Assembly (NCBI GenBank): GCA_008690995.1
Contig: VRMN01000001.1
Location: forward strand, 3,596,001 to 3,660,000
Direction of reading: 5' to 3'
Source: Porphyridium purpureum
Lineage: Eukaryota; Rhodophyta; Bangiophyceae; Porphyridiales; Porphyridiaceae
DNA: 64,000 nucleotides
The notes beneath the pieces are model-generated. The model was not told where the DNA came from. It did no database searches and saw nothing but the letters and a program-made list of their open reading frames with translations. The stretch's first letter is position 1. The number at the start of each line of letters is the position of its first letter. A program made the position numbers and the translations under genes. Below are positions 15,319 through 32,532 of this stretch, one piece after another.

Positions 15319-17037
15319 CTACTCCCCGCTGCTCTTGATAGCGCGCGACAAAATCCTCCACATATCATCCCTGCCCAGCCTGGTCTCGGAACTGGTGCTC
15401 ACAATCGGTACCCCCTGTAGACCGTTCTTTTCAAGCAGATCCCGTGTGGACTGCACAACGCGCGGCTTGGCGCGTCCCTTGCTCGTCTTGTCCATCTTTG
15501 TTAGGACAATGACATACTCTGCCATGAATTGCCCACTGCGGGACAAGGCTGCAACAATTTGTGAAAGCTCCTCATCATCTGCGAGCGGCCCATGGCGGCC
15601 ATCCACAAGGTGGAACAAGAGCCGCAGTGACTCGCGGCTTGTAAGGAAGTCTCGCATGAACTGCTTCCACGAATCCTGCACAGGCCGTGACACCTTGGCG
15701 TACCCAACGCCGGGACTGTCAACAATATAGAAGGGAGGACTCGCTGGCAGCGCCTTGGTCGCAGCCCGTTGCGCTTGCGCCTGCTCTGCACTGTGGCCAA
15801 GCTCGCGTCGACGCAACGCACGCTTGTTGGTCTTAATTGCAGGTGCGGCCTGCGCATCATCATTAACGAGAAAATAGTTGAACTGTTGTGTCTTACCTGG
15901 CCGCTTGCTCGTGTGAGCTAGAAATTTGCGCGCAAGTACCATGTTGACCAGCGAAGACTTGCCCACATTGGACCGCCCCACAAACATGGCCTCAGGCAGA
16001 GTCCTTTCTGGAAGCGTTTCCATGGAAACTGCACCTGTCAAAAACTCCACCTTTCTTACGGCTGCATTTGCCAGAAACTCGTACGATTCATTGTTGGTCG
16101 AGATACCGCACGCGTGCATGGCGTCCAACAACAAAAAGATGAGTTCCAGTCTACCCGCTTTTCCTAGCCGTCGAATCATGGTGTTGCATGTCTCGATCAT
16201 AAGCTGCTGGTGCTGCTCTTCTGGGTGCTCTGGGCCGCCATCCGTGATCGTGAAACCGGACCCATGTAAATGCATCCCTTTGCTTCCAATCTCCTTTGCA
16301 CGCACTAAGCACGTCTTGGCGAGCGTAAACTCGCCAACACGTGCCATCACCGAGGCAGTCTGAAGAAAAAATGCCCCATCCTTGCTATTGGAGGCGTCTT
16401 CCAGACTTGCGCCCGCCATCTTCATAATGTTCTCTCTTGCCAGGCCAGGATCAATGCCAGATGGTGGCTGTGTTTCCAGTCGCGGGCGAGTGGACTTCAA
16501 CTTCATCGTCTTGGCACTCGCGGACGTCGTAAGAGATTCGAAGCTAGTCACGACGCTTCCCAAGCGCTTCATCAGAAAAAGTGCGAGACCTGCATTGAAT
16601 TTGTCCAGCTTCCAGAACACCGATACGGCGAGATCCAAGCGGTTCAGCTTGTAAAGGGATCGAACCGCGAGATTCCATTCCTGCTCTGTTACACATGATA
16701 CATCCACGTCTTCATAAAGCGCAGCGATTTTACGTGGCGCATTTGCTTTCACGAGTTCGTTGATGGCATCCGTTCGCGGCTCGACTGAGCTACTTGTACT
16801 CTCGCGGACGGATCCCACCGCGGTAGCGACGTTGGCTCGACTTTGACCTTTCGTGTCTGGCGTGCTCCGCTCGCAAACCGCGTCCTGATAGCGTCCATAT
16901 TTCAAAGCGCCTATGAAGTTGGAGCGTGTGCCCCTTGTGCGCGAACAAGCAGACCGTACCTGAGGTGGGAGTGGCGTCGCAGTAATCCAACACGAAACAA
17001 ACAATAGGCCTGTGCGCGGTTCGACGAAGGAGCCCAT
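15319..17037 (-). CDS. PPR-like repeat region fused to an EngB-type GTPase, probably organellar
   Basis: The protein has 572 residues. The C-terminal 220 are an EngB/YihA GTPase: G1 GRSNVGKSS (about residue 353), a TSKRPGKTQQFNYF G2 region, G3 DSPGVGYAKV, G4 LTKMDK and a G5 region with STSSETRLG. Bacterial EngB assists large-ribosomal-subunit assembly, and plant homologues act in plastids or mitochondria. The N-terminal 330 residues are helical with PPR-like pairs, for example WNLAVRSLYKLNRLDLAV and NTMIRRLGKAGRLELIFLLL followed by a helix with YEFLANAA. The first 60 residues are basic, rich in Ser, Thr and Arg, and could be a transit peptide. A 20-residue basic insertion (ALRRRELGHSAEQAQAQRAA) lies between G2 and G3. 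The start is the ATG at 17037; codons further upstream are not ATG. The fusion is the notable feature. Confidence 0.85.
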   Translation of the reverse strand: MGSFVEPRTGLLFVSCWITATPLPPQVRSACSRTRGTRSNFIGALKYGRYQDAVCERSTPDTKGQSRANVATAVGSVRESTSSSVEPRTDAINELVKANAPRKIAALYEDVDVSCVTEQEWNLAVRSLYKLNRLDLAVSVFWKLDKFNAGLALFLMKRLGSVVTSFESLTTSASAKTMKLKSTRPRLETQPPSGIDPGLARENIMKMAGASLEDASNSKDGAFFLQTASVMARVGEFTLAKTCLVRAKEIGSKGMHLHGSGFTITDGGPEHPEEQHQQLMIETCNTMIRRLGKAGRLELIFLLLDAMHACGISTNNESYEFLANAAVRKVEFLTGAVSMETLPERTLPEAMFVGRSNVGKSSLVNMVLARKFLAHTSKRPGKTQQFNYFLVNDDAQAAPAIKTNKRALRRRELGHSAEQAQAQRAATKALPASPPFYIVDSPGVGYAKVSRPVQDSWKQFMRDFLTSRESLRLLFHLVDGRHGPLADDEELSQIVAALSRSGQFMAEYVIVLTKMDKTSKGRAKPRVVQSTRDLLEKNGLQGVPIVSTSSETRLGRDDMWRILSRAIKSSGE

Positions 17038-17129
17038 GTCTACCTTCAAAGCCGACGACCTACCGGTCTTCTACGTATTCCGCTTCACAAACCGCAGGAC
17101 ACAGGCCAATAGACTTGTTGAACTAAAAA

Positions 17130-17925: not shown

Positions 17926-18210
17926 CCTTCTCACACTCTTCCGCGTCTTTCTCGCTCCTCCTTGCTCGCCTTCTCCAAGCCTCCACTCTCATCAACCTGA
18001 CCCTCGCGATCCGCACACGATCTCGTCCACTGTTTTGTAGCCAGCTGGCGCTCTTTTACTAGATGAAATCTGGGTCGAGCACGTTGCGAGAACGAAGCTG
18101 CAGCAGCTGCGTTCTGCGCGTGTTCAGTTTCAGGCCGAACCGACCTTCACTTCATCTGCACGAATATGAGTAGAGATAATCTAAATTTTCCCCCCCCTTC
18201 TCTACCCGTA
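17926..18210. other. Promoter region of the SOD gene
   Basis: These 285 bp upstream of SOD contain the repeated 12-mer CTTTTACTAGAT (18053-18064) and end in a pyrimidine-rich run just before the permuted tRNA gene. Confidence 0.4.
18053..18064 (-). promoter_or_regulatory. 12-bp element upstream of SOD, repeated upstream of the EngB fusion gene
   Basis: The copy of CTTTTACTAGAT here lies 128 bp before the SOD ATG. See the copy at 17130-17141. Confidence 0.2.
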
Positions 18211-18317
18211 AAGCGCGCTGGGCTCATACGGCACAGTTTTACTACTTGCGCCGGCGAAACCCAGAGGTCCTCGGATCGAAACCGAGCGATGATACTTTCA
18301 TCATCGTGGCGCAGCGG
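18211..18317 (+). tRNA. Circularly permuted initiator tRNA-Met(CAT) gene with an anticodon-loop intron
   Basis: The tRNA halves are in reversed order. The 3' part comes first: D-stem strand GCGC 18213-18216, anticodon stem CTGGG 18218-18222, loop with anticodon CAT 18225-18227, a 30-nt intron about 18229-18258, stem CCCAG 18260-18264, variable AGGTC, T-stem CTCGG/CCGAG with loop ATCGAAA 18275-18281, acceptor strand CGATGAT 18287-18293 and discriminator A 18294. A 5-nt linker (CTTTC) follows. Then comes the 5' part: acceptor ATCATCG 18300-18306, TG, D-stem GCGC 18309-18312 and D-loop AGCGG to about 18317. The acceptor strands pair at all seven positions. A1:U72, the GGG/CCC anticodon stem and A54 in the T-loop identify a eukaryotic initiator tRNA. 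Joining the parts gives 72 nt plus CCA. The CCGT leader (18206-18209) can pair with GCGG (18314-18317), leaving an AAA bulge, consistent with splicing-endonuclease cutting. Internal boxes are swapped: B precedes A. Confidence 0.95.
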
Positions 18318-18338
18318 TTTGATACCCAGCCAGGAATC

Positions 18339-18344
18339 TTTTTT
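18339..18344 (+). terminator. Pol III T-run terminator of the permuted tRNA gene
   Basis: Six consecutive T residues lie 21 bp after the end of the 5' half, the expected place for RNA polymerase III to stop after copying the permuted precursor. Confidence 0.75.
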
Positions 18345-20089
18345 GCTTCTTGGCGTTGAATCGATGTGGTGACCGGTCCTCTGTGTGAAGAAGGCAGCGA
18401 AAAGTCCAGCCAGATATTTCAGACTCGGTGTAGGGGGAATACTTTGACCGTGCTACGAATACCACACCCGAGAAGAGCCGCTCAATCCGCTCACGTGCAT
18501 AAACCTCGTAAGATAGACCCCGCAACCGCTTTCAAAGCAGGCAGCTGTATCACCCGGGAACCCAAATCTCCTTGCCTCTTATTGTGCAGCACAAGACACT
18601 GCGAACCCCGCTGTGTCTGGCTCTAACCCCAGTATCTGTTTGCTATACGGACTCACTCGAACAATTCTCGAAACCATCTAAAAGGGAACTACCATGCGAG
18701 CTTGATCGGCTTCGCATAAGTTTACTGTGCCCGTCCGAGGACGCGATTTTCACGGGGTCGAAGAAGAAAGACATGTGAAGATGTCCATGTTCAAATACTC
18801 GCACCCTCACGCGCACTGGAATCTCGCCCGATGGGAACCTTCAAAAAGCACCTGTGTGTGACGTGAGCGCACGCAGCTATTTATGACACTCTCTTGCAAA
18901 GTCACTGCGGGTAAATAATTGGCCAAAGCTATCGGCAAACATCAAGCCATTCCACGCTGCCAGACTACTATTTTCCCTCGTAGGCGAACTCTGTCCCTAA
19001 GCGCCAGCACTTGCATGCTTCAAAACCATGGCGTGTGTCGACACAGAGACGTAATAAGTGCATGCTGGCAAACCTTGGAGTCGTAGCGCATTCATCCAAT
19101 CGCGGCGTGTCGAATACTTCGAGTTTCATTCTGCACTTTTCGCGCACACGAATCAAGACAACGAAAACCAAGCCATCGGAGCACAAGCTTGTGTGTAAAT
19201 TATGTACGTAAACCCATACCTCGTCCGGAATCCTACAAAGCCATGCTTCGGTACTGCGACAACTCCCGGACAGAGAGGGGTCATGTGCGAATTCGATACC
19301 TTGATGCCGAGTATAAATCGCGCAAGTTCAGAAAATGGAATCAGCAGCCTCGGTGACTATTTCCTTCACGCTGTTCACATCTGCTTCAAAATCTAGCACG
19401 TTGTCGAAATCTTCCAGACGACTGAGGAATTGAATGCAGTAACTTCGTCGGCCATCAAACTAAAATACGGGTGCCAACGCCCAAAGGCCGAGCGCATCCC
19501 CCACATCGCAGTACGTTTAGAGTGTGATTTCATTCACGACGATGGAGCCTCGTTTGGCGCCATGAGCTCGCTGGAGCCGGATGGCAGACACTGTTTGGAA
19601 GCAAAATTCGTGCGCCGTGTCCACTAAACAAGCCAGCTGCTGAACTCGTCCTCCTCCAATAAGATGCGCATCACACAGTCCGCCACGCGTGGCGGCGTCA
19701 CGGCAGCAGATACCGCCACCCTGGGCCTACCTGCCCCTCTCTCACGTGGCTGTCCTCGAGCGCGCACTGCATGGTACACGCAGGCGTCATAAAGGCGGGT
19801 AGGTGACCGTATTTCTCCCCTCTGCTGGCATGTCAGCTGACCCAGTGCAACTTCTACGCTTCGCCGCTTCGCGTCTGAGCTGGCTGCACGGAAGCGGCGA
19901 CTGACCGTTCTTGCAGGCGTGAAAAGCGTTGAGCGCGTGAAATGTGCGGAGTTGCGCAGGGGCGCAGCAGGGAGTGAGGAAGTAGAGCGCACGCTGTAGG
20001 ATTGCACGTCAGTAGACTGGGCGAAACGCAAATCTATATTTAACCGAGCCTGAACCGCTGAAAGAGTGGACGCCCACGCTATGTCAAAT
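18345..20089. other. Gene-poor interval downstream of the tRNA gene
   Basis: About 1.75 kb with only short open frames whose translations look random. I searched by eye for T-arm and D-arm sequences on both strands and found no second tRNA. Part of it is the 3' flank of the RPSA gene. A polymerase III or other non-coding RNA could be present but I cannot show one. Confidence 0.4.
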
Positions 20090-31326: not shown

Positions 31327-32532
31327 TCAACTCGCCTTGTTCTTAACTGGTGTCGACTCGCCCTGCCGAGCTCGCCATGCCTGAAGACCCTGCAGAATGC
31401 CGCCGGCGCAGTGGCGCTCTGCACGGAAAAGCCTTTCGTGTCGAGTCTGTGCTGCATACCAATCAAGCAGCTCGCGCTGACTGTTGCCCACAATAATGCA
31501 ATGCTCGTCACCTTCCATCATACCAATATCATTCCCAGAGTCGCCACAGCACAGCGTGTTTGTGGCGTCAAAGAGCACATCGCGCTTGTGATTCGGCTCT
31601 CTGTTCACGCATTCACGCACATGCATCATCGCGGCGAGCTTGCCAGCGGCGGGACTCAAAATATCCAAATATTTCCAGTCGCCATGACCGCTCAGGATGA
31701 GTTTGGCCTTTGTACCCGTGCGACGAGTCTGGAGCGCATTCGTGAAGTCTTGCACGAAGGCATCTGATAACGATGCGCGCACACCAACTACCAGCTTGAA
31801 TGCGTTCTGCTCACCGACGGGTCGCCAATGTGCACCGTGCTGGTACTTCTCCTGCGCCATGAGATCACTGGCCGCTCCGCGCGCCGCGTCGACATCCCAG
31901 CCATGTCCCTGCAAAGTAGCGTCCCACTCGGCGTCCTTCCGCCATGATCCGTCTTGCCCGAACCAGTATACTTCAGTCCCGACTGAACTAATCAGGGCTG
32001 CCGGCGTGAGTAGCTTCTTCTCCGCCTTGACCTGTTGAAATAAGTCGAGCGAGCGACCCGTGTTGTACACCAACACGCTGCCTGCTACCATGTGCGAGCG
32101 CTGCCATGTGTCAAAAAACTCGAACATTGCTGTGTCATCACCAAGCAACGTGCCATCGAGATCAGTGACGACCATGACGCATTCTGCCGCACTGCTTCTT
32201 GTCGTTGACACGCGTCCCGAGAACAACACAATTGTATTGACCCGCCGATCCACTTCAACCGTATAGTTGGCTCCCGGTGACCCGCTCGGATTGTCCCACG
32301 CGTTGTGTCCATCGTTCGGAGCAAACTCAAGACAACGCACTTGGTCGGCATCATCGATCTCGATCTCGATGTCAAACCAGCTGCCGCTCGTGTGCGCGAA
32401 TCCGTTGCACACGCTCATCGGTCGACCGGGCGGCTTGGTCCACGTGCCTGGATTCTCTGGGTTGCCATGGACCACGTAGTGCATGCGCGGCGCGGTCCAG
32501 CCGCTGCGATAAATCAGCCTAACTTTGCGCAT
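31327..32532 (-). CDS. Starch-binding (CBM25-like) module fused to a sucrose-phosphate-phosphatase-like HAD hydrolase
   Basis: The protein has 401 residues. Residues 1-100 resemble CBM25/CBM53: VRLIYRSGWTAPRMHYVVHG, GTWTKPPGRPM, WFDIEIEI, LEFAPNDGHNAWDNPSG and NYTVEV, carrying the aromatic residues that grip alpha-glucans. From about residue 118 an S6PP/SPP-type HAD domain follows: VVTDLDGTLLGDD (nucleophile Asp), VLVYNTGRSLD, AALISSVGTEVYW, LDILSPAAGKLAA (Lys) and CCGDSGNDIGMM. SPP enzymes dephosphorylate sucrose-6-phosphate and related sugar phosphates. With the glucan-binding module, this protein may act on starch granules or a starch-derived sugar phosphate. That role is inference. The ATG at 32532 is the first in frame. 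No transit peptide is evident, which fits the cytosolic starch of red algae. Confidence 0.85.
   Translation of the reverse strand: MRKVRLIYRSGWTAPRMHYVVHGNPENPGTWTKPPGRPMSVCNGFAHTSGSWFDIEIEIDDADQVRCLEFAPNDGHNAWDNPSGSPGANYTVEVDRRVNTIVLFSGRVSTTRSSAAECVMVVTDLDGTLLGDDTAMFEFFDTWQRSHMVAGSVLVYNTGRSLDLFQQVKAEKKLLTPAALISSVGTEVYWFGQDGSWRKDAEWDATLQGHGWDVDAARGAASDLMAQEKYQHGAHWRPVGEQNAFKLVVGVRASLSDAFVQDFTNALQTRRTGTKAKLILSGHGDWKYLDILSPAAGKLAAMMHVRECVNREPNHKRDVLFDATNTLCCGDSGNDIGMMEGDEHCIIVGNSQRELLDWYAAQTRHERLFRAERHCAGGILQGLQAWRARQGESTPVKNKAS

What the first reader, a model, noticed from the sequence alone, without database searches (positions are those of the whole stretch)
18211..18317. Permuted initiator tRNA gene that also carries an anticodon-loop intron
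The two halves of a eukaryotic initiator tRNA lie in reversed order on one strand, cut in the D-loop, with a 5-nt linker between the acceptor ends and a 30-nt intron after the anticodon. All seven acceptor pairs, the T-arm with ATCGAAA, and A1:U72 are intact, and a T6 terminator follows. Permuted tRNA genes matured through a circular RNA are established for the red alga Cyanidioschyzon merolae. Here one essential single-function tRNA needs three cutting events (two at the permutation junction, one intron). I cannot tell whether this particular gene has been reported.
Basis: partly seen in the sequence, partly recalled or inferred. Interest (0 to 1): 0.9.

Follow-up and report, generated by a model that had tools for sequence, protein, structure and literature searches.

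The report
Scrambled-order initiator tRNA gene with intron
In what looks like an acid-loving red alga, the gene for the tRNA that starts every protein is written in two pieces in reversed order and also holds an intron; the trick is known from a related alga, but this arrangement of this gene differs from the one described there.

Summary
On the + strand, 18211/18212-18317 (to 18319 at most) holds a circularly permuted eukaryotic initiator tRNA-Met gene: 3' half, 5-nt linker, 5' half. The break is in the D-loop and a 30-nt intron lies at 37/38. Reordered without the intron, the pieces give an intact 72/73-nt cloverleaf that ARAGORN calls tRNA-Met(CAT); in genomic order it finds nothing. A TATA-like stretch lies 22-35 bases upstream and T6 follows. 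The flanks can form a relaxed bulge-helix-bulge across the break, but that evidence is modest: 1.9% of random flanks do as well, and its energy is no better than random.

Permuted tRNA genes are a known kind (34 in Soma's 2014 review). The same layout is listed for Cyanidioschyzon merolae tRNA-Leu(TAA), and a permuted, 37/38-intron initiator tRNA for the archaeon Thermofilum pendens. C. merolae 10D's initiator gene is listed with another break (50/51), a 74-bp linker and no intron, so this is not that gene. The window fits a compact cyanidiophycean nuclear genome; the species is not proven. No genome or RNA was held, so single copy and expression are untested. New member of a known kind, of moderate interest because the break point may move between relatives.

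The parts
18176..18189 (+). TATA-like A+T-rich stretch, 22-35 bases upstream of the 3' half; likely upstream Pol III promoter
   Evidence: fits the 'within 50 bp upstream' rule for C. merolae tRNA genes (PMC3978253 section 4)
18201..18212 (+). leader strand of the relaxed bulge-helix-bulge: outer pairs 18201-18202, 4-bp helix 18206-18209 (CCGT, with 18314-18317), bulge AAA 18210-18212
   Evidence: pairs listed; chance estimate
18211..18228 (+). 3' half, first exon piece: (A20)A21, D-stem 3' strand, anticodon stem 5' strand, anticodon CAT, A37. Starts at 18211 or 18212
18229..18258 (+). 30-nt intron at 37/38; C32 (18223) can pair with the third-last intron base (18256, A-I pair); own helix CGGC/GCCG. 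Contains a run of four T (18237-18240)
   Evidence: A-I pair and T4 read from the sequence
18259..18294 (+). 3' half, second exon piece: anticodon stem 3' strand, variable loop, T-arm (ATCGAAA), acceptor 3' strand, A73
18295..18299 (+). 5-nt intervening sequence CTTTC joining the acceptor ends
18300..18317 (+). 5' half: acceptor 5' strand, T8, D-stem 5' strand, D-loop to G19 (may extend to 18318 or 18319)
18318..18344 (+). trailer: bulge TTT 18318-18320, outer pairs 18321-18322, Pol III-type terminator T6 18339-18344

Best explanation
A functional nuclear gene for the cytosolic initiator tRNA-Met, circularly permuted at the D-loop (type I, about 20/21) and also interrupted by a 37/38 intron. 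RNA polymerase III probably starts from an upstream TATA-like element, because the internal A and B boxes are in reversed order, and stops at T6. The pre-tRNA folds with both ends meeting at a bulge-helix-bulge in the D-arm; tRNA-splicing endonuclease cuts leader and trailer off and a ligase joins the ends into a circle. The 37/38 intron is removed by the same machinery (probably last of the splicing sites), RNase P and tRNase Z cut the 5-nt linker out of the acceptor loop, and CCA is added. Shown here: the parts and their pairing potential. Inferred from the published C. merolae pathway: transcription, circle, order of steps. Most likely source: a compact cyanidiophycean red alga.
For: Intact cloverleaf and Met call only after reordering; 62, 60 and 58 of 72 identities to yeast, Arabidopsis and human initiator tRNAs recalled from memory; only such hit in the window; initiator marks A1:U72 and A54 and three G:C pairs in the anticodon stem (drawing). 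TATA-like stretch upstream and T6 downstream, with neither in the 5-nt linker. The fold of 18201-18325 has the acceptor, T, anticodon and D helices plus the junction helix. Known pathway with circular RNA in algae (PMC3978253 sections 4-8). Host fits: GC 53-61% per 4 kb, 28 non-overlapping ORFs of 200 aa or more in 64 kb; Cyanidiococcus and Cyanidioschyzon have 54.6-55.0% GC and 36 and 27 introns in the whole genome.
Against: No RNA evidence. The junction motif is weak: 4.4% of 5000 random flank pairs form the 4-bp helix and 1.9% also the outer pairs, a test whose terms I set after seeing the fold; the collapsed junction (-15.6 kcal/mol) is weaker than the random mean (-18.9), 83.8% of 1000 random flank pairs being as low or lower. 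In all three longer stretches folded another structure is 0.7-2.1 kcal/mol better, and the fold z-score is only -1.1. The minimum-energy fold of the mature 72-mer alone is not the cloverleaf, though human initiator tRNA folds the same way in the program. With the intron left in, ARAGORN places it elsewhere and calls Ser(CGA). The strict central helix at 37/38 is mismatched at 2 of 4 positions (read by hand). The intron holds TTTT (18237-18240), which could stop Pol III early in species where four T suffice. No second genome was available to show conservation.
Confidence: 0.9

Rival explanations
1. A non-functional permuted copy or remnant of a tandem duplication, with an ordinary or differently permuted initiator tRNA gene elsewhere doing the work.
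For: Copy number cannot be tested, no genome held. C. merolae 10D is listed with a differently permuted initiator gene. T4 inside the intron.
Against: All 21 stem pairs of the cloverleaf are intact; terminator and TATA-like element in place; no remnant of the missing outer halves in the 80 bases on either side (three comparisons, all below the random mean). [quoted passage not shown]
Confidence: 0.07
2. Assembly artefact: parts of a normal tRNA gene joined in the wrong order.
For: Raw reads not available.
Against: The permuted order comes with a possible junction helix and a terminator close behind the 5' half; the same gene form is published for algae.
Confidence: 0.02
3. Chance resemblance.
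For: The 5' half alone is no better than chance in similarity to yeast.
Against: 30 of 35 and 15 of 16 matches in the other two pieces, above the random maxima, in correct order and spacing with 7/7 acceptor pairs.
Confidence: 0.01

Closest known systems
C. merolae 10D permuted tRNA-Leu(TAA), type I (Soma 2007, seen through the Soma 2014 review PMC3978253)
   Same: D-loop junction 20/21 and an intron at 37/38; short intervening sequence
   Different: Leu instead of initiator Met; 10-bp intervening sequence against 5; 21-bp intron against 30
C. merolae 10D permuted tRNA-iMet(CAT), type III
   Same: Permuted initiator tRNA in a red alga
   Different: Junction 50/51, 74-bp intervening sequence, no intron: a different gene structure
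Thermofilum pendens permuted tRNA-iMet(CAU) (PMC3218864 passages)
   Same: Permuted initiator tRNA that also has a 37/38 intron; 7-nt intervening sequence
   Different: Archaeon; junction 59/60 in the T-loop; CCA encoded; 15-bp intron
Micromonas (two species) permuted tRNA-iMet(CAT), type II
   Same: Permuted eukaryotic initiator tRNA
   Different: Junction at 37/38 itself, 47- and 12-bp intervening sequences, no further intron

Membership tests
circularly permuted tRNA genes | 3' half upstream of 5' half on one strand, separated by an intervening sequence between the acceptor ends | tested here: met
circularly permuted tRNA genes | reordered halves give a complete tRNA | tested here: met
   ARAGORN, 72-nt and 73-nt versions both tRNA-Met(CAT)
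circularly permuted tRNA genes | bulge-helix-bulge between leader and trailer at the junction | tested here: inconclusive
   Relaxed form possible (3-nt bulges, 4-bp helix, 2 outer pairs), but 1.9% of random flanks match it and its energy is weaker than the random mean
circularly permuted tRNA genes | TATA-like sequence upstream, T-run downstream, neither in the intervening sequence | tested here: met
   linker is CTTTC; TATA-like 18176-18189; T6 18339-18344. A T4 lies in the intron
circularly permuted tRNA genes | circular RNA intermediate and charged mature tRNA | not testable with these tools
   no RNA data
eukaryotic initiator tRNA-Met | CAT anticodon, A1:U72, three G:C pairs in the anticodon stem, A54 in place of T54 | tested here: met
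   A54 as a mark is, the other marks are general knowledge
tRNA intron at 37/38 | intron one base 3' of the anticodon with an anticodon-intron pair and 3' bulge | tested here: met
   18229-18258; C32 opposite the G three from the intron end, bulge AAA; read from the sequence, fold. A strict bulge-helix-bulge is not formed
the listed C. merolae 10D iMet gene | junction 50/51, 74-bp intervening sequence, no intron | tested here: not met

The most novel reading that the evidence does not exclude
The start point of a permuted gene moves between relatives. The initiator tRNA gene is permuted in C. merolae 10D at 50/51 and in this genome at the D-loop, with an intron at another classical site. If this is the orthologous gene in a sister lineage, the gene behaves like a circle cut at changing bulge-helix-bulge sites: each tandem duplication with loss of the outer pieces can turn an intron into the new junction. 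That would make permutation a recent, repeated and nearly neutral process rather than a relic, for the one tRNA that no isoacceptor can replace.
Probability: 0.3. Interest if true: 0.7.

Novelty: new member of a known kind. Interest (0 to 1): 0.5.

Why it matters
The initiator tRNA has no isoacceptor that could stand in for it, so if this is the only such gene, all cytosolic translation depends on circularization, intron splicing and opening of a 5-nt acceptor loop. Against the listed 10D gene it offers a direct comparison of two break points in one tRNA species, which bears on the open question whether permuted tRNA genes are ancient or arise repeatedly. The 5-nt linker is shorter than the 7-74 nt listed for C. 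merolae 10D and equals the shortest listed for algae (Bigelowiella natans nucleomorph, 5).

Tried and rejected
Standard tRNA and Rfam searches found nothing in the window; a permissive Rfam search of 18000-18600 gave one sub-threshold snoRNA match on the other strand (15 bits against a 40-bit cut-off, E 3.2), taken as chance. A search for further tRNAs of either order in the window gave only this gene; that scan accepts only 5/5 T-stem and 7/7 acceptor pairs, so weaker genes would be missed. Remnants of a tandem duplication in the flanks: none above chance. An exact pattern for permuted initiator tRNAs in viral contigs: 0 matches. Naming the species by solved-structure matches: four window proteins gave only family-level matches, and the tables name molecules, not organisms (one search showed 60 of 95 rows). 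I considered that the window is C. merolae 10D itself. The initiator gene listed for 10D differs, and ORF spacing (64 kb / 28 ORFs of at least 200 aa = 2.3 kb) is nearer Cyanidiococcus (12.1 Mb / 4,884 genes = 2.5 kb) than 10D (16.5 Mb / 5,022 = 3.3 kb; figures). This is rough, since it compares ORFs with annotated genes, and an undescribed second 10D gene is not excluded. Publication status: one held paper has both 'Cyanidiococcus' and 'permuted', and there 'permuted' occurs once, in the reference list. Soma 2013 was not held; Soma 2007 and Maruyama 2010 were seen only through reviews. tRNA databases could not be searched. In one search the printed anticodon-stem slice was off by one base; the stem is taken.

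Full report
What is there. The + strand at 18211-18344 reads, in order: D-stem 3' strand, anticodon arm with CAT, a 30-nt intron, T-arm with ATCGAAA, acceptor 3' strand and A73, then CTTTC, then acceptor 5' strand, T8, D-stem 5' strand and D-loop to GG, then TTT and, after 18 more bases, T6. ARAGORN and Rfam at gathering threshold see nothing in the window. With the halves put in mature order and the intron removed, ARAGORN calls tRNA-Met(CAT) with all stems intact, for a 72-nt and for a 73-nt version. With the intron left in, ARAGORN places it at 32/33 and calls Ser(CGA); I take that as a limit of the program, since the 37/38 placement gives the initiator consensus. The minimum-energy fold of the mature 72-mer is not the cloverleaf, but human initiator tRNA, folded as a control, takes the same non-cloverleaf shape.

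Is it more than chance. A scan of both strands for a perfect T-stem, a T-loop motif and a 7/7 acceptor partner gave one hit in permuted order and none in normal order; 20 Markov-1 random sequences (dinucleotide make-up of the window) gave 0.1 hits of each kind per sequence. The filter was written after the candidate was known. Against the yeast initiator tRNA (recalled sequence) the two exon pieces of the 3' half match at 30 of 35 and 15 of 16 bases, random maxima in 15 sequences being 23 and 13; the 5' half alone, 14 of 19, is at the random level (13-15). The whole 72-mer matches yeast, Arabidopsis and human initiator tRNAs at 62, 60 and 58 positions.

The junction. In the fold of 18201-18325 the D-stem is followed by a 3-nt bulge (AAA) on the leader side, a 4-bp helix CCGU/GCGG, a UUU bulge on the trailer side and two outer pairs. 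This is a relaxed bulge-helix-bulge: one unpaired A faces AAA, and UAC faces UUU. Against it: 4.4% of 5000 random flank pairs make the helix and 1.9% the helix with outer pairs; the collapsed junction is weaker (-15.6) than the random mean (-18.9 kcal/mol); the fold z-score is -1.1; and three longer transcripts have alternative folds 0.7 to 2.1 kcal/mol better. So the motif agrees with the reading but does not prove it. The exact break is therefore left open by one or two bases.

The intron. 18229-18258 lies after A37. C32 faces the G three bases before the intron's end, the anticodon-intron pair that yeast splicing endonuclease uses (A-I pairs: PMC3978253 section 8; exact positions general knowledge), and CGGC/GCCG forms an inner helix. 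A strict central helix is mismatched at two of four positions (read by hand). A run of four T at 18237-18240 lies inside the intron; it must not stop transcription if the gene works.

Host. The window holds clearly eukaryotic genes in long open frames: 40S ribosomal protein SA, Dcp2, dyskerin-type pseudouridine synthase, AMP deaminase, protein kinase. GC is 53-61% per 4-kb stretch. Cyanidiococcus (54.6%, 12.0-12.1 Mb) and Cyanidioschyzon (55.0%, 16.5 Mb) have 36 and 27 introns in all (passages of PMC9812998 and PMC13353863). The ORF spacing of 2.3 kb is nearer the former. The species is not proven.

Comparison with the known. Soma's 2014 review (abstract and sections 4 to 10 read, 4 and 10 in their first parts only) lists 34 permuted genes in seven organisms. 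One C. merolae gene, Leu(TAA), has the layout seen here: junction 20/21 with a 37/38 intron. Permuted initiator genes are listed for C. merolae (50/51, 74 bp, no intron), two Micromonas (37/38, no intron) and T. pendens (59/60, with a 37/38 intron). None of the three eukaryotic initiator rows has an intron or a D-loop junction. A 2025 preprint reports permuted genes in the green alga Auxenochlorella (passages); their identities were not seen.

Mechanism. Algal permuted pre-tRNAs are shown to pass through a circle (section 6 of the review), and their tRNAs in C. merolae are charged (section 5). Applied here: two splicing cuts and a ligation at the D-loop, two cuts and a ligation at 37/38, then RNase P and tRNase Z on a 5-nt linker, then CCA addition. 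In C. merolae the 37/38 site is reported to be the last splicing substrate (section 7), which predicts that the circle at first still carries the intron.

Verdict. A real and very probably working permuted initiator tRNA gene: a new member of a known kind. Its special interest is that the listed 10D initiator gene is cut at a different place. Whether the two are orthologous, whether this is the only initiator gene, and whether the circle is made remain untested.

Noticed in passing
15319-17049 (-): 576-aa ORF with a PPR-repeat match (287-329) before a GTPase domain (MMR_HSR1, 354-501); an unusual pairing that might be a real fusion.
   Followed up: no
31327-32532 (-): Sucrose-phosphatase-like domain with an N-terminal CBM25 carbohydrate-binding domain at its cut-off score, in one 401-aa ORF.
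   Followed up: no
17926-20089: In the greedy list of non-overlapping ATG-started ORFs of 130 aa or more, the tRNA gene lies in the longest gap (2,164 bases), between a Fe/Mn superoxide dismutase gene and the 40S ribosomal protein SA gene.
   Followed up: partly
18190-18197: Run of eight C just downstream of the TATA-like stretch and upstream of the gene; meaning unknown.
   Followed up: no
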